From: Planctomycetota bacterium
GTDB taxonomy: Bacteria > Planctomycetota > Phycisphaerae > Phycisphaerales > SM1A02
DNA length: 64,000 nt
Assembly (NCBI GenBank): GCA_024230295.1
Contig: JAAERN010000166.1
Span: forward strand, 1-64,000
Direction: 5' to 3'
The position numbers and the translations under genes were made by a program. This document shows, one piece after another, positions 11,608 to 22,501 of this stretch (the stretch's first letter is position 1; every line of letters begins with the position of its first letter). The notes beneath the pieces were generated by a model, which saw only the letters and a list, made by a program, of their open reading frames with translations, was not told the origin of the DNA and did not search any database.

Positions 11608-13935
11608 ATGCCAGACGTGGCCCGTGCCATCCTGACTTCATGGACGATTGAACCGTGGCCGCTCGCGCTTTCGCTGCTCGCCGTACTGATCTACTGGCGA
11701 GGATGGCGAGGCCTACACCGAACGATGCCGCATCGTTTTTCGCGGTGGCATCTGACTGCGTTCATTGCCGGGGTCGCCGTGTGCTGGCTGGCAATCGCTT
11801 CCCCCATCGATCCAATTGCATCGATGCTGCTTCAAGTCCACATGGTGCAGCACGTCATGCTCATGATGATCGGCCCGCCACTCATTTTGCTGTCGATGCC
11901 TGGCATTCCAATGCTCCGTGGTCTTCCAGCAACCATCAGAAACGACTGGCTCGGGCCGTTTCTCGCCTCACCGGGTTTTCGCAGGATGGTGCGAGGGATT
12001 ACGCATCCGATCATCACCCTGACGGTCTTCGTCATCGCGACCTGGATGTGGCACTACCCAGCCTTGTATGAATTTGCCCTTCGTAGCAGCGTCTGGCACG
12101 AAGTGGAACACTTTGTTTTCATCACAACCTCACTGCTCTTCTGGTGGCCGGTCGTGCAGCCATGGCCGAGCACGCCTGCCTGGCCACGATGGGCGATGCT
12201 CCCCTACCTGCTTGCCGCAGATCTGCAGAACACGCTCTTCTCGGCAATCTTCGTATTTCTCGAAACGCCGATTTACGGCGCCTACGCCGCCGCTCCAGAT
12301 CTTCTGGGCGTCACGACCATGCAGGACCAGGCCGCGGCCGGTGCGATCATGTGGGTTGTTGGTTCTGCTGCGTTTCTGCTTCCAATCGGATTGATCATCA
12401 AGAAGTTATTGCAGCCCCGTCTCGCAGCCGTACCCTCACTTGCAGGCAGTGGCATGCGTGGACGGAGCGTCGATCTCTCACTCCCAATTCACGGCGGCAG
12501 TATCGGACACAGCGGAGCGCCGCTGCGAACCCACAGGCGATCGGATCTGCTCAAACTTCCGGTTCTCGGCACAGCGTTACGATCGCTCCTGCTACGGCGA
12601 GTCGTGCAGTGGGTTCTGCTTGGAGTTGCAGCAGCAGTCGTTCTCGATGGCCTGCTCGGCCCGCAATTGAGCCCGCTGAATCTGGCCGGCGTCGTTCCAT
12701 GGACACACTGGCGAGGACTCGTCGTAATCGCTCTGCTCGTCGCAGGCAATGCCTTCTGCTGGGCATGCCCCTTCATGATTCCACGCGAACTTGGCAAACG
12801 GATCTTTCGCCCAGTTCGACGATGGCCCCGTCACCTCCAATCCAAGTGGATTGCCGCCGCCCTACTGCTGATCTACCTGTGGGCCTATGAGGCTTTTAGT
12901 CTCTGGGACTCGACGTGGTGGACAGCGTGGGTCGTCATCGGCTATTTCGCAGCAGCTCTGGTCGTCGACTCCTTCTTTCGCGGCGCAGCGTTCTGCCGCT
13001 GGATCTGCCCAATCGGCCAATTTCATTACATTGAATCGATGGCTTCGCCGCGAGACGTTGCGGTAATCGATAAAGCCGTGTGCGGTAGTTGCCGAACCCG
13101 AGATTGCATTCGGGGTGGCGCTCGTGGGCGAGGCTGCGAACTGAATCTCTATCTTCCCGCCAAGCGAGGCAACCTCGACTGCACTTGGTGCATGGACTGC
13201 GCCCGCGCATGCCCGCACGACAACGTCGGCGTTCTGCATCGCCCACTGCTCGAAGATGTCTCGACGAACTCATGGCGGAGCGGCATCGGCCGCCTCTCGC
13301 GGCGCCCGGACCTGGCGGTGCTGGCAATCCTCCTGACGTTCGGCGCCTTCGCCAATGCGATGGGCATGGTCGGCCCCGTCCTTGATTTCGAGGATCGATT
13401 CAGCGAAGCCATCGGCGCTTCGACACCGATCCTCGGTGCCACTCTGGTCCTGCTTGCAGTCACTCTCGTGCTGCCGCTGATTGTGCTCCCCATCATCGTC
13501 AACCTCACAGCCGCAGCGTGCCGCCTCAATGAACGTGTACTCCATACAACGTGCCGTCTTGCATTCGCCATGGTGCCAGTCGGATTCGCGATGTGGGTCG
13601 TTCACATGCTGTTCCACTTCTTTACAAGCTTTGGCACGATTGTCCCGGTTTCGCAGCGGCTTGCCGGAGATCTGGGCCTCAATCTCGGGGAGCCCGCCTG
13701 GGTTCTGGCGTGCTGCCTCAACGTCCCAAGCTGGTTGCTGCCATTGGAACTGCTGCTCCTCGACGCGGGCCTGGTCCTGACGGTCGTCGCGGTGCATCGA
13801 CTCGCCCGGACCGCAGTGCCGCGTCGTCATCTTCTCGCCACGATGCTGCTATCGCTCCCCGCAGGCATGCTCTTTGCGATCGGCGTCTGGATTACGCTCC
13901 AGCCGATGCAGATGAGAGGGACGATTCTTCCATGA
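11608..13935 (+). CDS. CtaG-type copper/oxidase assembly protein fused to a membrane polyferredoxin
   Basis: A 775-residue polytopic protein made of two recognisable parts. Residues 1 to about 275 match caa3_CtaG membrane proteins involved in cytochrome oxidase maturation, with conserved histidines in HMVQHVMLM, WMWHYP and HEVEH. After a basic linker comes a NapH/CcoG-like part with CWAC at 384-387, CRWICP at 463-467, a first cysteine set C492, C495, C500, C510 and a canonical 4Fe-4S motif C525, C528, C531, C535-P. More helices follow. This gene begins 39 bp after cytochrome b and overlaps the next start in an ATGA. CcoG-type proteins reduce copper during oxidase assembly, so a combined copper-reducing and copper-inserting factor is a reasonable inference. 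Confidence 0.85.
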   Translation: MPDVARAILTSWTIEPWPLALSLLAVLIYWRGWRGLHRTMPHRFSRWHLTAFIAGVAVCWLAIASPIDPIASMLLQVHMVQHVMLMMIGPPLILLSMPGIPMLRGLPATIRNDWLGPFLASPGFRRMVRGITHPIITLTVFVIATWMWHYPALYEFALRSSVWHEVEHFVFITTSLLFWWPVVQPWPSTPAWPRWAMLPYLLAADLQNTLFSAIFVFLETPIYGAYAAAPDLLGVTTMQDQAAAGAIMWVVGSAAFLLPIGLIIKKLLQPRLAAVPSLAGSGMRGRSVDLSLPIHGGSIGHSGAPLRTHRRSDLLKLPVLGTALRSLLLRRVVQWVLLGVAAAVVLDGLLGPQLSPLNLAGVVPWTHWRGLVVIALLVAGNAFCWACPFMIPRELGKRIFRPVRRWPRHLQSKWIAAALLLIYLWAYEAFSLWDSTWWTAWVVIGYFAAALVVDSFFRGAAFCRWICPIGQFHYIESMASPRDVAVIDKAVCGSCRTRDCIRGGARGRGCELNLYLPAKRGNLDCTWCMDCARACPHDNVGVLHRPLLEDVSTNSWRSGIGRLSRRPDLAVLAILLTFGAFANAMGMVGPVLDFEDRFSEAIGASTPILGATLVLLAVTLVLPLIVLPIIVNLTAAACRLNERVLHTTCRLAFAMVPVGFAMWVVHMLFHFFTSFGTIVPVSQRLAGDLGLNLGEPAWVLACCLNVPSWLLPLELLLLDAGLVLTVVAVHRLARTAVPRRHLLATMLLSLPAGMLFAIGVWITLQPMQMRGTILP

Positions 13936-15055: not shown

Positions 15056-15328
15056 ATGGCTAAAGCGATCATCGATCCGGATGAAGTACGGCGTTTCGCG
15101 AGCGAACTCAAGCGATTCACCGACACAATGCACGAACAAATGAACTCGCTCATGTCTCGCCATCGATCTCTCGGCCAGAGTTGGCGAGATCAGGAGCACC
15201 AGAAGTTCTCCGAGGAGTTCGAACACACAATGAGAACACTCGGACGATTCCGAACCGACGTCTCAGAACATGTGCCGTTCCTCCTGAGAAAGGCGCAACG
15301 TGCAGACGACTACCTCAATCAACGATAA
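15056..15328 (+). CDS. WXG100-type secretion substrate (ESX/T7SS-like) with WxD motif
   Basis: A 90-residue all-helical protein of the length and pattern of WXG100 (EsxA/EsxB) proteins: a first helix, a turn with W43-R44-D45, then a second helix. The usual W-x-G is W-x-D here. Family members form helical-hairpin dimers exported by FtsK/SpoIIIE-type ATPases. The start is supported by AAGGAG 11 bases upstream. Three further genes follow closely on the same strand, and the fourth gene encodes an EccC/EssC-like ATPase, which strongly supports the call. No C-terminal YxxxD/E export signal is obvious; the end reads RADDYLNQR, with a tyrosine three residues past an aspartate pair. Confidence 0.8.
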   Translation: MAKAIIDPDEVRRFASELKRFTDTMHEQMNSLMSRHRSLGQSWRDQEHQKFSEEFEHTMRTLGRFRTDVSEHVPFLLRKAQRADDYLNQR

Positions 15329-15336
15329 TCTTCCGC

Positions 15337-15921
15337 ATGCGTGATCAGGTAAATGTCCAGAGCATCGACGCCATTTCGAATCTTCGAGGGCAGATTGTCG
15401 AAACAAGTGATCTTCTCTCCAGAACCATCGACGAGTGCATCAGCCGAACCACAAGATTGTTGGCTTGGATTCAAGGGCCGCAACTGCAGCATTGGCGAAT
15501 GCAGAAACGCAAGCGCGATCAGAGAGTTGCATCCGCGCGAAGTGATCTCGAACGGGCAAAGATTTCGCGGCCGGATGCAGACCCACGAAGTTTCATCGAC
15601 CAACAACGTGCCATTCGCAAGGCCAAAGCTGCCGCCGATGAAGCAGACGACAAACTCAAGCTGATCGCACATTGGTGTCGAGAACTCGATCGCCAAATCA
15701 CTCTGTTTCGAGGAGGGCTTCGGCCACTCGCATCCGCCGCAGAAGCCAACTTGCCCAGAGCGGGCCGATGGCTTGCTGAATTGGCGAGGCATCTCGAGGG
15801 GTATGTCGAAGTGGCACCCCCGATGCCGGAAGCGAGTGATGAATCGACCGACCCGGGAGCCCCCTCCCGAGGTCGGCGCGGAACGACCGAGCCTTCGAAG
15901 CCCGAGGAGCCTGACGAGTGA
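15337..15921 (+). CDS. Helical/coiled-coil protein of the T7SS-like module
   Basis: This 194-residue protein starts nine bases after the WXG100 gene and its stop overlaps the next start (GTGA). It is almost entirely predicted helix. Charged heptad-like segments around residues 50-120 (KRKRDQRVASARSDLERAKI and AIRKAKAAADEADDKLKLIA) form a long coiled coil, then comes a Pro/Ser/Glu-rich acidic tail from about 160 to the end. There is no signal sequence, membrane helix or catalytic motif. A larger substrate, a chaperone for the WXG proteins or a structural adaptor are all possible. I do not recognise the family. Confidence 0.65.
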   Translation: MRDQVNVQSIDAISNLRGQIVETSDLLSRTIDECISRTTRLLAWIQGPQLQHWRMQKRKRDQRVASARSDLERAKISRPDADPRSFIDQQRAIRKAKAAADEADDKLKLIAHWCRELDRQITLFRGGLRPLASAAEANLPRAGRWLAELARHLEGYVEVAPPMPEASDESTDPGAPSRGRRGTTEPSKPEEPDE

Positions 15922-16130
15922 ATCTGAATTCAGAGCGTGCCAGAATCCGTGAAGGATGCCGCGGCCTGATGCTGGCGTGGGAATCTGCAGGCCAGCAGTG
16001 GAACGATCCTCAGCATCGCCTTCTGGGGGAGCGGTTTCTCCTCCCGCTCCAGCAGTCCCAGCGGAGTGCCGACTCGGCTCTGGAAGTCATGAATGAAATC
16101 ATCTCGCGGGTAGAACGCGACTGTGGATAA
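15918..16130 (+). CDS. Short WXG-like protein paralogous to the WXG100 protein
   Basis: A 70-residue helical protein whose GTG start overlaps the upstream stop as GTGA. Its central segment WNDPQHRLLGERF (W28) aligns without gaps to WRDQEHQKFSEEF (W43) of the WXG100 protein at 15056, sharing W, D, H, E and F at the same spacing. This indicates a second member of the family in the same operon, as expected for an EsxA/EsxB-type pair. The shorter length leaves a short first helix and a full second helix. The identity is inferred from this motif, the size and the gene order. Confidence 0.65.
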   Translation: MNLNSERARIREGCRGLMLAWESAGQQWNDPQHRLLGERFLLPLQQSQRSADSALEVMNEIISRVERDCG

Positions 16131-16199
16131 ACTTCCGTCTCACGGTCCCATGTATGGCATAATCGCGTCAACTTCCTTTGGCAGAATATAGCTCGGCCC

Positions 16200-19100
16200 A
16201 TGTCGAATCGCAGTCTTATCGATCTCGTAGAAGAAACGCTTACGGCGTCAGTGGTTCTATTGGAACGCACAGCCTCGGAGTGTTCGACCTCGAACGCTGA
16301 ACTGGAGGCTGCTGACTCTTCTTGCCGCATGCGCGCGGCAACCGAGACAGCAGCAGTACGCCAGCAGCTCGCCGAAGCGAAGGAGACGGCCAAGAGCACG
16401 TTTGAATCGAGCGCTGCTGACCTTCGCCGGCGATGGGACGCGACAAAGCAGGAATTGGACGGGCAAGCCCAAGAACGCAAGACCGTGATACTTGACGAGG
16501 CCACATCAATACGCTCGACTGCAGCTTCAAAGGAAGCTGAAGCAAGTTGGTTGGCCGAGACGCTCTACGAGGCTGATATCGAAGGGACCTCCGGGAACCT
16601 TCGACACGCCCAACAAGTTGCCTCCGAATCCGAGTGGCGGCAGCGTGAGGTACTGGAGAAAGCTGCCAAACTGCGACCCCGCCTTCGACTGCCCTCGCGC
16701 AGTACCGAGGAGCCCAAAGTTCATGACGGCCCGGAGTTGGCAAGCGAAGCCGAGATTCAACAACGGCTAGACGCCGCCGACCAACTCCTCTCTCAAGTCC
16801 ATGGCACCGTGCGAGACCGCATACTTCGGCGGGTCGGGCAATATGTTGGCCTTCTCATCCCGATTGCAGCAGGCGCGGTTATTGGTGTACTCGCCAACGC
16901 GATCGCCGTGAGCCTGTCAGCTGGTGTCGCCCTCGGCTTTGCGATATTCATTGCTGTGCGATTGAGCCTTCGGTCGGCAGCGCGATCCAAGGTATTGAAG
17001 GCAGAGCAGATCGCGTGCCAAGGGTTCGAACTCGCGAGACGGCGATGTCAGATCGCTGAAATGAAATTTCAGCAGCAGGAGTGTGAATCGCGTCAAGAGA
17101 GGGACACCAGACGCAGTTCGGCTGTCGATGAACTGGGGCGACAACTTGACGCGGCTGGACCACGAACCAGACGACGACTGGAGAAACTGCAAACCCACAT
17201 CGATGAGGCCTTGAAAGCCGCCCGTGCGAAACGCGATTCAAATATGGCGAAGTACCAGGATGAACTAGACCACGCACTCAAACAGGCCCACACTGCCTGT
17301 GACGAAAAAATACAAGTGATTGCTTCTCAATTGGAAGCTACTCTTGCCGCCGCCCAAGCAACACGGGACGCCATTTGGTCTGATGTCGCAGCCAGATGGC
17401 AAGCATGCGAGACAACACTCACAAACAACCTCGCTGAGATTGATCGACTGCAGAGAGTACTTGCCCCCGAATGGCCGACATGGGACGGGGATTGGGATGA
17501 TTGGACACCACCCACCACCTTCAACGGCGATATCGGAATCGGCATCATTCGGTGCAATTTCGAGAAGAGCCTTCGCCTGATAGCCGATGACCCGCGTCTC
17601 GTCTGGCATGGCCCCAAAGAACTCTCACTTCCGATCGCGCTCAACTTTCATGGGCGTGGGTCGCTTGTTGTGGAGCACTCGGAGCCTCAACGCGGAGAAG
17701 CTGTTTACATCGCTCAGGCGCTCTTGGCCAGAACACTCACGACCGTGCCGGCCGGACGCATTCGGCTGACCCTCTACGACCCAGTAGGAATCGGACAGAC
17801 ATTTGCCGGGTTCATGCACCTTGCTGATCACGAAGAAGCGGGCGTACTAGAACGGGTGTGGACTGAACCTCGCCACCTCGAACAGAAGCTCGCCGATATC
17901 ACCGAGCACATGGAGAAGGTCATTCAGACGTACCTTCGCAACGAGTACGCCACGATTGATGAGTACAACCAGGCGGCTGGACAGATCGCTGAGCCCTATC
18001 ACATTCTGGTGCTGACCGATTTTCCTGAGGGCATCTCAGAAGCCGCGGCTCGGCGGCTGGCGAGCATCCTCGCCAGTGGCCCACGATGCGGCGTGTTCGC
18101 ATGCGTGCTCCATGATCCGGCGCGCGACCTCCCCCAAGTGCTGCAGGACATCGACTGGAAGCCCCACCGGATCCGTCTCTCTGGATCCAAAGATGGATGG
18201 TCGATCCTCAGTCCAGCTCTTGGCGACTTCTCGTTCGCCCCAGATACACCACCGGCCGATGAGTTGCTCACGGCCATCGTTACACGCTATGGAGAAGCAT
18301 GCGCTGGAGCCAATAGCGTCGAGGTCCCGTTTGATCTGGTGGCACCAGAGAAAGACGACATGTGGACCCGGTCGTCGGCCGTAGATCTTCGTGTGGCACT
18401 GGGGCAGAGTGGCGCCACACGATTCCAAGAATTGCGACTTGGCCGAGGAACGACTCAGCATGCCTTGATCGCAGGACGAACCGGCTCAGGCAAGTCCACA
18501 CTGCTCCACGTACTGATCACCAATCTCGCAATGTGGTATTCCCCAGAGGAAGTCGAGTTCTATCTTGTCGACTTCAAGAAGGGCGTTGAGTTCCAGACCT
18601 ATGCGATTCACAAACTCCCCCATGCTCAAGTGATTGCAATTGAAAGCGATCGGGAGTTTGGTCTCAGCGTGCTTCGGCGGCTGGATCGTGAACTTCGCCG
18701 GCGAGGCGACCTTTTTCGTGACGCCGCAGTCCAGGATCTACCTGGGTGGCGATCTCACTCCACCGATCCGATGCCTCGAGTCTTGCTGATCGTGGACGAG
18801 TTCCAAGAGTTCTTTGTGAATGATGATGCGCTTGCACAAGAGGCTTCGTTGCTCCTTGACCGACTCGTCAGACAAGGTCGGGCATTCGGCATGCATGTAC
18901 TGATGGGCTCCCAGACTCTCGACGGCGCTTTTTCTCTCGCCCGCAGTACGCTCGGGCAAATGGGCGTGCGGGTGGCCCTCCAGTGCTCCGAATCGGATTC
19001 ATATCTCATTCTCAGTGATGACAATCCCGCAGCCAGACTTCTTCGCCGACCCGGAGATGCCATCTACAACGATGCTGGAGGCAAAATCGAAGGCAACTCG

Positions 19101-20084
19101 CCGTTCCAAGTAGTCTGGTTGGACGATCGCGATCGTGATATGGCGCTCAATGAGATTGGAAAGATCGACGCCGAGAAGAATGCTGGCATCGAACGCTCAC
19201 AGTTTGTTTTTCGGGGCAATGTCCCCTCAGTGCTGTCAACAGATCGAGGCATTTCGGCCTTGGTTGCCGATGGAAAAGGCGACGCAACTACAGTGGATCT
19301 AGGCATCGTGCTCGGCGATCCCATCGCGATCAAGGGCCAGACCTCGTTCCAACTCCAGCCAAGAACCGGATGCAATGCAATGCTTGTCGGCCAGAATCCA
19401 GACGCCGCCAACGCAATTATGACTGCATCGCTCCTTCAGGCGGCAGCGACTCTGGAACCAACCGACTCTCCGGATTCGGAAGGTTTGATGGTATGGATCT
19501 TCGACGGATCGCCGCCCGATGCGATCTACGCGGGCCGGCTCACAGCGTTCGCGAACGATCTCCCACATCAAATCACCAGAGTGACCGCCAGAAACGCTGA
19601 TACCGAACTTCAGAGACTCGGAGAAATCCTCGCATCACGAAGCGATGGTGTTCGACAAGATCGTGCAACCATTCTGTTGCTTGGACTTGAGCCCAATCGA
19701 ATTTCATCAATACGTCCTGCAGAGGACGACTTCTCATTCTCCATGGATGAGAATGCCGCAGCCACACCAGATCGAGTCCTCGCAGATGTGCTTCGAGAAG
19801 GTCCCGTTGTTGGGATTCACTCGATGCTGTGGTTTGATGGCCTCAACAATGTCAACCGCGGTCTGAGCAGAGCGAGCCAGCGGGAGTTCGGCATCAAGAT
19901 TCTCTTCCAGATGAGTGCGAATGACTCGGGGCAGTTGATCGATTCAACCGCAGCGGCTGACTTGGGGCCGGGCCGAGCGATCCTCCACCGAGAGGAGACG
20001 GGCGTGATCGAGAAATTCCGCCCGTGGGCCATGCCCGATGACGAGTGGCTGGCAACGGTAGCGATGTCGATTCGCAGCCGATAA
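16200..20084 (+). CDS. FtsK/SpoIIIE-family (EccC/EssC-like) T7SS ATPase with three ATPase modules
   Basis: A 1294-residue protein likely to drive export of the WXG proteins. Residues 1-215 are largely coiled coil. Two adjacent membrane helices span about 218-237 and 238-257, and a second coiled coil covers about 265-425. Three similar modules follow. Module 1 has a degenerate P-loop (491-500), a YD at 526-527 and a Walker-B-like strand ending at D607. Module 2 has intact Walker A GRTGSGKS (759-766), VDF with D791, and Walker B LLIVDE (D866, E867). Module 3 has GQNPDAAN (1064-1071) in place of Walker A, FD at D1102 and a Walker-B-like strand ending at E1164 without the aspartate. EccC/EssC share this tandem layout. 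No FHA domain and no FtsK gamma DNA-binding domain is seen. A DNA translocase is the less likely alternative. Confidence 0.85.
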   Translation: MSNRSLIDLVEETLTASVVLLERTASECSTSNAELEAADSSCRMRAATETAAVRQQLAEAKETAKSTFESSAADLRRRWDATKQELDGQAQERKTVILDEATSIRSTAASKEAEASWLAETLYEADIEGTSGNLRHAQQVASESEWRQREVLEKAAKLRPRLRLPSRSTEEPKVHDGPELASEAEIQQRLDAADQLLSQVHGTVRDRILRRVGQYVGLLIPIAAGAVIGVLANAIAVSLSAGVALGFAIFIAVRLSLRSAARSKVLKAEQIACQGFELARRRCQIAEMKFQQQECESRQERDTRRSSAVDELGRQLDAAGPRTRRRLEKLQTHIDEALKAARAKRDSNMAKYQDELDHALKQAHTACDEKIQVIASQLEATLAAAQATRDAIWSDVAARWQACETTLTNNLAEIDRLQRVLAPEWPTWDGDWDDWTPPTTFNGDIGIGIIRCNFEKSLRLIADDPRLVWHGPKELSLPIALNFHGRGSLVVEHSEPQRGEAVYIAQALLARTLTTVPAGRIRLTLYDPVGIGQTFAGFMHLADHEEAGVLERVWTEPRHLEQKLADITEHMEKVIQTYLRNEYATIDEYNQAAGQIAEPYHILVLTDFPEGISEAAARRLASILASGPRCGVFACVLHDPARDLPQVLQDIDWKPHRIRLSGSKDGWSILSPALGDFSFAPDTPPADELLTAIVTRYGEACAGANSVEVPFDLVAPEKDDMWTRSSAVDLRVALGQSGATRFQELRLGRGTTQHALIAGRTGSGKSTLLHVLITNLAMWYSPEEVEFYLVDFKKGVEFQTYAIHKLPHAQVIAIESDREFGLSVLRRLDRELRRRGDLFRDAAVQDLPGWRSHSTDPMPRVLLIVDEFQEFFVNDDALAQEASLLLDRLVRQGRAFGMHVLMGSQTLDGAFSLARSTLGQMGVRVALQCSESDSYLILSDDNPAARLLRRPGDAIYNDAGGKIEGNSPFQVVWLDDRDRDMALNEIGKIDAEKNAGIERSQFVFRGNVPSVLSTDRGISALVADGKGDATTVDLGIVLGDPIAIKGQTSFQLQPRTGCNAMLVGQNPDAANAIMTASLLQAAATLEPTDSPDSEGLMVWIFDGSPPDAIYAGRLTAFANDLPHQITRVTARNADTELQRLGEILASRSDGVRQDRATILLLGLEPNRISSIRPAEDDFSFSMDENAAATPDRVLADVLREGPVVGIHSMLWFDGLNNVNRGLSRASQREFGIKILFQMSANDSGQLIDSTAAADLGPGRAILHREETGVIEKFRPWAMPDDEWLATVAMSIRSR

Positions 20085-20698: not shown

Positions 20699-22501
20699 AT
20701 GGCACGCTCGCACAGCCTCATCCTGACTCTACTTTCGCTCACAACGCTGGTCGTGGTGGGCTGCAGTTCCGTCGAACGTGCCAGACCGCGACCACAGGCC
20801 TCATCGACCATCCGGGATCTCGACGGCATGGAAACGACCAGCATCATGCGAGGGACCGTCGGAGCAGAGACGGTCATATTGGGCTGGGATGACAGCACCA
20901 GCCCAACCTACCGCCCCGTCCGCATTCGAGGCTACGGCCTCGTAGTCGGGCTGGAAGGTACGGGGTCTCGTGATGCACCCCCCAATGTCCGTGCTCACAT
21001 GCTCCAACTCATGGCTAGGCAGGGAATCGGAAGTGAACGCATCGGCTTCGGTGACATGTCACCCGAATCGATGCTTGATTCCCAGAACACAGCAATCGTC
21101 ATCGTGGAGGGCATCGTGCCGCCGGGCGCCGTTGGACGCCGCCGAACACCACCGAGCGCCTCTGGGCGAATGCCCGAAATGCTCCCAGGGACCACCTTTG
21201 ATGTCCATGTGCACGCCGACCCACGAACGGGAACTACGAGCCTCGAAGGTGGCCGGTTGTATACGACGGACATGAGCCCCGGACCATTGCTCACCGGTGA
21301 TAGACAGGCTCGTGTTCTCGGTCAATCAGCAGGTCCGATCTTCCTCAATCCGTTCCTCGAGCGCGAGGACGTCTCGGCGGGCGACATCAACACGCTTCAC
21401 GGCCGCATTCTCAACGGCGGGCAGGTACTCGAAGACATGCCGCTCAAGTTGAGGATGATCAACCCGAGCCACTCCCGAGTACGGGTCATCCAGGACGCCA
21501 TCAATCGCCGCTTCCCTCTTGAACGTGGGCAAGCCCGACCAACTGCTCACGCAGTCAATGACGCCGCCATTGAGCTTACAGTCCCGCCGTCGATGCGAGA
21601 GAAGCCAAATGACTTCGTGCACATCGCTCAGCACGTCACGCTACGACAGATTGACACGGATCGCGTAGCAAACACAATCCGACGGTCGTTACAACGAGAT
21701 CCCTCCCATGCTGCGTCCGCATACTGGCGATGGGTTGCGATGGGACCACAGGCACTTCCAATGGTACGGAAGATGTATGACTACCCGGAAGCCCTTCCTC
21801 GGCTGGCAGCCCTTCGAGCCGGTGCGGAACTTGGCGACGCGATTGCGGCTGAGTCACTCCGCGATATGCTTGCCAGCGGCACGCTCGCATCTCGGCTGGA
21901 AGCGACAACGCTCTTGGCAAAGTTGCCATCTGACCCTCGAACGGAGGACGTACTTCGATCGGCGCTTAATGATGAAAACGTCGAAGTCCGCCTCCGAGCC
22001 TACGAGGCGCTTGAGCAACTCCGGTCTACCGCCGTGCACCGCCATCTGGTTCCCGGTCGATTCGAACTTCACCAAGTCGCATCCGCCTTTCCCGCTATCT
22101 ACGTGACACAAGCCCGCGCTCCTCGCATCGTCGTACTCGGCGAAGACGTGCCGATTGAACGGCCAATGACGCTTGGTCTATGGGACAACCAGTTGCTCAT
22201 GCGACAGTCCTCCGACGGCGGCCGCATCGAAATCTTTCACCGCGTCCACGCCGACGGGCCGCCAGAGGTCAATCAGATCACGCCAACACTTCGAGAGATG
22301 ATCCTGCTCCTTGGGCACGCGCCGTCTGTCGAAGATCCGACTCCCGGCCTCGGCCTGACCTACAGCAAAGTGGTTGGCGTCCTTCATGCGCTCTGGAAAC
22401 GCCAGTATGTGGCCGCGGACTTCAAGGCTCAGCAGGATCGAATTCTCGCAGAACTCCGCCGCGCAGCCACCACCAGTGACTATCAGCCACGCCCCGAATA
22501 G
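20699..22501 (+). CDS. FlgI-like (P-ring fold) lipoprotein with HEAT-like repeats
   Basis: A 600-residue exported lipoprotein with lipobox LVVVGC. The N-terminal half carries FlgI hallmarks: GYGLVVGLEGTG, a TAIVIVEGIVPPGA segment, and DVHVHADPRTGTTSLEGGRL, which corresponds to the D-V-x-V-x-x-x-x-D-A-x-S-L-x-G-G pattern of flagellar P-ring proteins. Residues of about 340-450 are helical repeats of HEAT type (segments such as LASRLEATTLLAKLPSDPR followed by a similar one). No other flagellar gene is present in the window. The protein probably forms or decorates an envelope ring or assembly unrelated to the flagellum, which is inference; FlgI-domain lipoproteins of unknown role are known from planctomycetes. 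Confidence 0.7.
   Translation: MARSHSLILTLLSLTTLVVVGCSSVERARPRPQASSTIRDLDGMETTSIMRGTVGAETVILGWDDSTSPTYRPVRIRGYGLVVGLEGTGSRDAPPNVRAHMLQLMARQGIGSERIGFGDMSPESMLDSQNTAIVIVEGIVPPGAVGRRRTPPSASGRMPEMLPGTTFDVHVHADPRTGTTSLEGGRLYTTDMSPGPLLTGDRQARVLGQSAGPIFLNPFLEREDVSAGDINTLHGRILNGGQVLEDMPLKLRMINPSHSRVRVIQDAINRRFPLERGQARPTAHAVNDAAIELTVPPSMREKPNDFVHIAQHVTLRQIDTDRVANTIRRSLQRDPSHAASAYWRWVAMGPQALPMVRKMYDYPEALPRLAALRAGAELGDAIAAESLRDMLASGTLASRLEATTLLAKLPSDPRTEDVLRSALNDENVEVRLRAYEALEQLRSTAVHRHLVPGRFELHQVASAFPAIYVTQARAPRIVVLGEDVPIERPMTLGLWDNQLLMRQSSDGGRIEIFHRVHADGPPEVNQITPTLREMILLLGHAPSVEDPTPGLGLTYSKVVGVLHALWKRQYVAADFKAQQDRILAELRRAATTSDYQPRPE

What the first reader, a model, noticed from the sequence alone, without database searches (positions are those of the whole stretch)
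15056..20084. Compact type VII secretion-like module in a planctomycete
Sequence shows four close genes: a 90-aa WXG100-type protein, a 194-aa helical protein, a 70-aa protein with the same W-x-D core, and a 1294-aa FtsK/SpoIIIE-family ATPase with membrane helices. Known ESX/T7SS systems pair Esx substrates with an EccC/EssC ATPase, but none of the other known core parts (EccB, EccD, EccE, MycP, EsaA, EssA, EssB) is recognisable in the window. A minimal secretion system in a two-membrane bacterium would be new in mechanism, since known T7SS span a single membrane or a mycomembrane. Transport function is inference.
Basis: partly seen in the sequence, partly recalled or inferred. Interest (0 to 1): 0.9.

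Follow-up and report, generated by a model that had tools for sequence, protein, structure and literature searches.

The report
Membrane-anchored WXG100–ATPase operon in planctomycetes
Planctomycetes and their relatives carry a conserved four-gene operon built around the two hallmark parts of mycobacterial and staphylococcal type VII secretion, a small WXG100 protein and an EccC-type ATPase, but without the rest of that machine; it is a membrane-anchored, stand-alone version of a little-studied operon known from Helicobacter and from stress/defence islands, and what it moves is unknown.

Summary
Four genes (15056-20084) encode E1 (90-aa WXG100), H2 (194-aa helical hairpin), S3 (70-aa W-x-D protein) and a 1294-aa FtsK/EccC-type ATPase. 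The order E1-H2-S3-ATPase recurs across Planctomycetota and Verrucomicrobiota and in Electronema, amid changing flanks. Where the operon has split, the parts are still kept, once per genome. The ATPase model has three tandem domains whose best matches are EccC/EssC, but only the middle domain keeps Walker A and B motifs. A hydrophobic stretch sits inside the long helical N-terminus. YukD and EssB are absent from the genome.

It is not unprecedented. The same core was noted in passing as a 'minimal T7SS' in Helicobacter pylori (HP0062/HP0066) and in TerY-P/CoCoNuT islands, where the H2 equivalent carries a nuclease. The version here differs: membrane-anchored, no nuclease, no Ter partners. Most likely it is an inner-membrane, EccC-like engine that binds an E1-(S3)-H2 complex and exports H2, or uses it as an adaptor. 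Export is inferred, not shown.

The parts
15056..15328 (+). E1: 90-aa WXG100 protein (W43-R-D45 turn); the only WXG100 gene found in the genome
   Evidence: PF06013 30.9 bits vs cut-off 27.3; profile hits HP0062, EsxB, EsxA structures; mean column identity 65% over 36 relatives from several phyla, invariant W43 and D45; single genome hit
15337..15921 (+). H2: 194-aa protein; long two-helix hairpin (residues 10-77 and 83-159) plus disordered tail
   Evidence: AlphaFold2 mean pLDDT 89.7; no significant fold match, only generic coiled coils; alignment A3
15918..16130 (+). S3: 70-aa W-x-D protein, GTG start overlapping the H2 stop; near-invariant C-terminal Cys69
   Evidence: sequence; alignment A4, invariant W28 and D30, nearly invariant W21 and C69; profile-profile match to E1
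16200..20084 (+). 1294-aa FtsK/SpoIIIE ATPase of EccC/EssC architecture
   Evidence: PF01580 1.3e-28; best NCBIfam EccCa/EssC/EccCb; fold search top hits EccC 4nh0 and EssC 4lya
16836..16973 (+). hydrophobic stretch (residues 213-258), long enough for a two-helix membrane hairpin, between the two long N-terminal helical regions
   Evidence: hydropathy scan of the window protein; at least one such segment in 124 of 128 near-full-length family members
17529..18251 (+). D1: degenerate ATPase domain without Walker A (residues about 444-684)
   Evidence: AlphaFold2 model; motif inspection on A5
18387..19271 (+). D2: intact ATPase domain (residues about 730-1024)
18474..18500 (+). Walker A GRTGSGKST (residues 759-767)
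18783..18803 (+). Walker B LLIVDEF (residues 862-868)
19299..20027 (+). D3: degenerate ATPase-like domain without Walker A (residues about 1034-1276)

Best explanation
The four genes are one functional unit: a stand-alone, membrane-anchored WXG100/EccC-type module of the PVC bacteria. The ATPase probably forms a ring at the inner membrane, held by its hydrophobic stretch. Its cytoplasmic part has three FtsK-like domains, of which only D2 can hydrolyse ATP. E1, probably a dimer as reported for HP0062, with or without S3, probably binds the ATPase and carries the long hairpin H2, so that H2 (with E1) is exported across the inner membrane or serves as the adaptor for a further cargo. Shown: parts, order, family, domain architecture, motif loss, hydrophobic anchor, single copy and co-occurrence. 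Inferred: ring formation, complex formation, transport and its direction. Any step across the outer membrane is unknown. The confidence given is for the export/adaptor mechanism; that the four genes form one real module is about 0.97.
For: Order conserved with different flanks in Phycisphaerae and in Planctomycetota, Verrucomicrobiota and Electronema. Among 41 relatives, H2 is present in 25 of 26 genomes with a full ATPase hit and 0 of 15 without (Fisher p 2.5e-10; related genomes, so not independent). A split operon (E1-H2 in one place, S3-ATPase in another) is kept in Rhodopirellula and K23_9, and H2 lies far from the ATPase yet is retained in complete genomes G307, G384, G428 and G568. ATPase model pLDDT 88, three tandem domains, top eight Foldseek hits all EccC/EssC, 4nh0 aligned over the whole core. 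In relatives the H2 position is a toxin-like carrier: the Helicobacter plasmid gene has a C-terminal WHH/colicin-DNase nuclease followed by a SUKH immunity gene, and the Caballeronia and G640 copies have long C-terminal extensions with a D-ExK-like motif read by eye. An Imm33-like domain ends H2 in a Phycisphaerales relative.
Against: No transport data. Only one WXG100 gene and one H2 gene per genome, with rare exceptions, unlike T7SS with many substrates. No YxxxD/E tail in 94 E1 proteins. D1, the key motor of EccC by my own knowledge, has lost its Walker A here. Most PVC H2 proteins carry no cargo domain. No outer-membrane component is linked to the operon. D2 alone is as close to the FtsK DNA motor as to EccC. 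The nearest relatives sit in DNA/RNA defence islands and lack transmembrane helices.
Confidence: 0.5

Rival explanations
1. A nucleic-acid-handling or phage-defence device: the FtsK-type ring pumps DNA (or RNA), and the WXG100 and hairpin proteins are adaptors that load or regulate it. The PVC form would be a membrane-tethered cousin of the TerY-P/CoCoNuT modules.
For: Relatives lie between VWA genes next to CARF, PP2C, kinase, AAA and DUF2357 genes and carry coiled-coil nucleases. D2 fits the FtsK DNA motor as well as EccC. PADLOC hits SspH and mad8.
Against: Three-domain EccC/EssC arrangement, WXG100 partners, a hydrophobic membrane stretch, no nuclease in the window's H2, no FtsK gamma domain hit, no Ter/CoCoNuT neighbours at the immediate flanks, and a constant position within the genus unlike a mobile defence island.
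Confidence: 0.25
2. A static or regulatory inner-membrane assembly: E1, S3 and H2 are permanent subunits of the ATPase complex and nothing is exported; the module works in envelope organisation or stress response.
For: Single-copy E1 and H2 co-retained with the ATPase; E1 is more conserved than the ATPase (65% vs 51% mean column identity, on different sequence sets), which suits a structural subunit; no substrate repertoire found.
Against: The H2 equivalent with nuclease and immunity gene in Helicobacter points to a delivered cargo; motor with intact Walker motifs in D2.
Confidence: 0.2
3. An ordinary FtsK/SpoIIIE chromosome translocase next to unrelated small genes.
For: Automatic annotation of relatives as 'FtsK/SpoIIIE domain-containing protein' or 'DNA translocase FtsK'.
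Against: The genomes also have a separate FtsK-like gene (in G000 at C141:30371); no gamma domain hit; conserved WXG100 neighbour and EccC-type three-domain core.
Confidence: 0.02

Closest known systems
WXG100/FtsK (EssC-like) operon of TerY-P and Type III-A CoCoNuT islands (Bell et al. 2024, PMC11090510; Anantharaman et al. 2012 as cited there)
   Same: Three ATPase domains with only D2 active, long helical N-terminus, two WXG100-type proteins, a coiled-coil protein; same order E1 - coiled coil - small protein - ATPase in Caballeronia (L181) and in G640 (L197)
   Different: PVC form has a hydrophobic membrane stretch, H2 lacks the nuclease, there is no extra gene between H2 and S3, no VWA/CARF/PP2C/kinase/McrBC neighbours, and it occurs alone
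Helicobacter HP0062-HP0066 ('minimal type VII set', PMC4978471; HP0062 structure 3fx7, PMC3397514)
   Same: WXG100 hairpin with a W-R-D turn (profile E 5e-13) linked to an FtsK-like ATPase; the Helicobacter plasmid copy (L182) is collinear
   Different: In the plasmid copy the ATPase is shorter, the H2 equivalent carries a WHH/HNH nuclease and is followed by a SUKH immunity gene; HP0063-HP0065 themselves were not seen here
T7SSb (Ess/Yuk) and T7SSa (ESX)
   Same: WXG100 protein plus membrane-bound EccC/EssC ATPase with tandem domains, the two parts shared by all T7SS (PMC11217815)
   Different: No YukD, no EssB in the genome, no FHA domain hit, D1 without Walker A, one WXG100 gene only, no YxxxD/E tail

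Membership tests
Type VII secretion system (T7SSa/T7SSb) | WXG100 helical-hairpin protein | tested here: met
   PF06013 above cut-off; EsxB/EsxA/HP0062 hits; motif is W-x-D, not W-x-G
Type VII secretion system (T7SSa/T7SSb) | Membrane-anchored ATPase with three tandem EccC/EssC domains | tested here: met
   Model and fold search; hydrophobic stretch 213-258
Type VII secretion system (T7SSa/T7SSb) | Reaches the curated EccC or EssC equivalog score | tested here: not met
   107 bits vs 509 (EccCa), 87 vs 778 (EssC), 82 vs 347 (EccCb)
Type VII secretion system (T7SSa/T7SSb) | Active D1 motor domain | tested here: not met
   No Walker A in D1; intact motifs only in D2
Type VII secretion system (T7SSa/T7SSb) | Ubiquitin-like YukD/EsaB and YukC/EssB (T7SSb) | tested here: not met
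   0 hits in the genome (97.6% complete), control rings in B. subtilis
Type VII secretion system (T7SSa/T7SSb) | EccB (T7SSa) | tested here: inconclusive
   0 hits, but the control rang nowhere
Type VII secretion system (T7SSa/T7SSb) | EccD, EccE, MycP, EsaA, EssA | not tested
   Not searched genome-wide; only the YukD domain was
Type VII secretion system (T7SSa/T7SSb) | Secretion signal YxxxD/E on the WXG100 partner (T7SSa) | tested here: not met
   0 of 94 E1 proteins in the last 30 residues
Type VII secretion system (T7SSa/T7SSb) | Export of the WXG100 protein or its partners | not testable with these tools
   Needs fractionation or proteomics
TerY-P/CoCoNuT WXG100-FtsK operon | Three ATPase domains with only D2 active | tested here: met
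   description
TerY-P/CoCoNuT WXG100-FtsK operon | Two WXG100-type proteins | tested here: inconclusive
   E1 by Pfam; S3 by profile-profile match only, no structure predicted for it
TerY-P/CoCoNuT WXG100-FtsK operon | N-terminal coiled coil on the ATPase | tested here: inconclusive
   Charged, helix-like N-terminal region matching apolipoprotein helices; no coiled-coil predictor run
TerY-P/CoCoNuT WXG100-FtsK operon | No transmembrane helices in the ATPase | tested here: not met
   Hydrophobic stretch in the window protein and in 124 of 128 PVC-type members; no comparable hairpin in the plasmid relatives
TerY-P/CoCoNuT WXG100-FtsK operon | Coiled-coil protein fused to a D-ExK nuclease | tested here: not met
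   H2 of the window is hairpin plus disordered tail; nuclease-like extension only in relatives such as L181 and L197
TerY-P/CoCoNuT WXG100-FtsK operon | VWA/TerY, PP2C, kinase, CARF or McrBC neighbours | tested here: not met
   Immediate flanks are a cytochrome bc/oxidase gene set, a FlgI-like gene and SMC; flanks differ elsewhere
FtsK/SpoIIIE chromosome translocase | DNA-reading gamma domain at the C-terminus | tested here: not met
   No such Pfam hit in the 1294-aa protein; separate FtsK-like gene in the genome

The most novel reading that the evidence does not exclude
A distinct, PVC-wide type VII-like export system for two-membrane bacteria made of only four proteins, driven by a D2-only EccC-type motor, in which the hairpin H2 is the exported carrier and E1/S3 are its WXG-type escorts; possibly the ancestral or stripped-down form of the nuclease-delivering modules of Helicobacter and the CoCoNuT islands.
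Probability: 0.3. Interest if true: 0.8.

Novelty: new variant of a known kind. Interest (0 to 1): 0.56.

Why it matters
Type VII secretion is described mainly from Gram-positive bacteria and mycobacteria. A single-copy, four-gene WXG100/EccC module conserved across a two-membrane superphylum, in places retained even when its genes are scattered, gives a minimal natural system for asking what WXG100 proteins and an EccC-type ATPase can do without the other parts. It also links three literatures that rarely meet: ESX secretion, the unexplained HP0062/HP0066 genes of Helicobacter, and the TerY-P/CoCoNuT defence islands.

Tried and rejected
H2 fold search: only generic coiled coils, no match at E 0.001 or better, so no family from structure. 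S3 against solved structures: best E 0.059 to EsxA, not significant. EccB search: control rang nowhere, so absence is not shown. Literature for WXG100 plus Planctomycetes: three papers; the two opened say nothing of this operon. Considered and rejected: chance small ORFs next to FtsK (order conserved); housekeeping FtsK (separate gene); a recent mobile element in the window (same flanks throughout the genus; no tRNA gene in the window). H2 as a WXG100 protein: rejected, profile match to E1 weak (probability 11.5%) and helices far longer.
Full report
OBSERVATION. E1 (15056-15328) ends 8 bases before H2 (15337-15921); S3 starts with GTG at 15918 and overlaps the H2 stop; the ATPase starts at 16200. 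E1 passes Pfam's WXG100 cut-off. The ATPase hits FtsK_SpoIIIE (1.3e-28) and its best NCBIfam models are EccCa, EssC and EccCb, but far below their equivalog cut-offs. The window protein has a hydrophobic stretch at residues 213-258. H2 and S3 have no family.

CONSERVATION. A search of 61 genomes round the window's own found long ATPase relatives (about 39-68% identity) in nearly all of the same family and patchily in the order. A simple gene caller written here shows E1-H2-S3-ATPase in that order in at least 23 of 36 loci, with E1 almost always exactly 90 aa and with flanks that change between genera. Within the class 78 of 248 genomes have the ATPase; within the phylum sample 62 of 392; in a Verrucomicrobiota sample 14 of 241. 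A scan of GTDB species genomes found Planctomycetota, Verrucomicrobiota, Candidatus Electronema and one record titled Bacteroidetes, whose sequence sits inside the Verrucomicrobiota clade and may be mislabelled. About 35 of those 60 loci show the complete order; many others are cut by contig ends.

CO-OCCURRENCE. E1 is single-copy in nearly all genomes searched, and in G000 it is the only WXG100 hit in the genome. Among the same 41 genomes, H2 is found in 25 of 26 with a full ATPase hit and in none of 15 without; the genomes are related, so the p-value is a guide only. In Rhodopirellula and K23_9 the operon is split: E1 and H2 lie in one place, S3-ATPase in another (in the R. baltica draft E1 and H2 are on different contigs). 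In complete genomes G307, G384, G428 and G568 the single H2 lies hundreds of kilobases or more from the ATPase. Retention after separation argues for a shared function.

PROTEINS. E1 is the most conserved part (65% mean column identity over 36 sequences, invariant W43 and D45). Its profile matches the solved structures of HP0062 of Helicobacter pylori, EsxB and EsxA. S3 is a shorter W-x-D protein, matching the E1 profile with 79% probability, with a near-invariant C-terminal cysteine. H2 is predicted with high confidence as a long two-helix hairpin with a disordered tail; its fold search gave only generic coiled coils. In part of the Phycisphaerae H2 has a C-terminal extension; the one tested is an Imm33-like domain (PF24719, 1.4e-14).

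ATPASE. The core model (870 residues, pLDDT 88) shows three tandem alpha/beta domains. The top eight Foldseek hits are EccC and EssC, with 4nh0 aligned over the whole core; VIA-align gives Z 30 over 525 residues to EccC and Z 31 over 278 to the FtsK motor. Walker A and B are intact only in D2; D1 and D3 lack Walker A in every sequence inspected. At least one hydrophobic segment lies in the N-terminal 500 residues of 124 of 128 near-full-length members.

KNOWN RELATIVES. Bell et al. 2024 (PMC11090510) describe EssC-like ATPases with three domains and an active D2 only, an N-terminal coiled coil but no transmembrane helices, two WXG100 proteins and a coiled-coil nuclease in Type III-A CoCoNuT islands, and cite Anantharaman et al. 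2012 for stand-alone copies. PMC4978471 calls HP0062/HP0066 a minimal type VII set. Plasmid relatives confirm this here: Caballeronia has VWA, WXG100, a 436-aa coiled-coil protein, a 113-aa protein, a 76-aa protein, FtsK, then CARF, VWA, PP2C and kinase genes; a Helicobacter plasmid has an E1 homologue, a coiled-coil WHH/colicin-DNase protein, a SUKH immunity protein, a 77-aa protein and FtsK; a Rhodococcus ATPase is fused to TerD. One Chthoniobacteraceae genome (G640) carries both the stand-alone PVC form and a VWA/PP2C/kinase-linked paralogue with a nuclease-like coiled-coil protein. Similarity of these coiled-coil proteins to H2 is partly positional: profile matches are clear in some (2e-9, 2e-8) and weak in others.

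MECHANISM. The architecture fits an inner-membrane EccC-like engine with WXG100-type escorts and H2 as cargo or adaptor; the nuclease-immunity pair at the H2 position in Helicobacter supports H2 as the carried part. Against a classical T7SS stand the single WXG100 gene, the degenerate D1, the missing YxxxD/E tail and the absence of YukD and EssB. Rivals are a nucleic-acid or defence device, as in the CoCoNuT islands, and a static membrane assembly. Export, ring formation and complexes are inference.

VERDICT. A real, conserved, single-copy operon; a membrane-anchored stand-alone variant of a known but little-studied WXG100/EssC-like module. In the literature reachable here its spread in the PVC group is not described; most subscription papers, including Anantharaman et al. 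2012 and Sutcliffe's survey of WXG100 systems, were not read, so prior notice there is possible.

Noticed in passing
L197 (G640:C40:1-15000): A Chthoniobacteraceae genome carries, besides the stand-alone operon, a second VWA/PP2C/kinase-linked copy with WXG100, a 445-aa coiled-coil protein with a nuclease-like C-terminus, a 120-aa and a 75-aa protein and FtsK: two lineages of the module in one genome.
   Followed up: partly
S3 family, window 15918-16130 (residue 69): A cysteine near the C-terminus of S3 is almost invariant in the PVC form, unusual for a small helical protein; its role is unknown.
   Followed up: no
L194, L195, L196: In Rhodopirellula-type genomes the operon is split into E1-H2 and S3-ATPase, still single-copy; in K23_9 and Rhodopirellula sp. 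UBA8648 a similar gene (looks TPR-like by eye) lies next to E1.
   Followed up: partly
H2 of L121, L067, L070, L041, L062 and others: C-terminal extension after a disordered linker, Imm33-like (PF24719) in the one tested (L121): an immunity-type domain fused to the presumed carrier. Only some Phycisphaerae have it.
   Followed up: partly
L168:3756-4922 (Electronema): H2 with a C-terminal extension that looks by eye like a PD-(D/E)XK nuclease (no Pfam hit), although its ATPase has hydrophobic membrane segments: a possible intermediate between the two forms.
   Followed up: no
window 20699-22501: FlgI-like (flagellar P-ring) protein with HEAT repeats and no other flagellar gene noticed nearby; conserved downstream of the operon in the same genus.
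   Followed up: no
window 11608-13935: 775-aa fusion of a CtaG-like cytochrome oxidase assembly factor with a 4Fe-4S (Fer4_5) region, beside cytochrome bc and oxidase genes.
   Followed up: no
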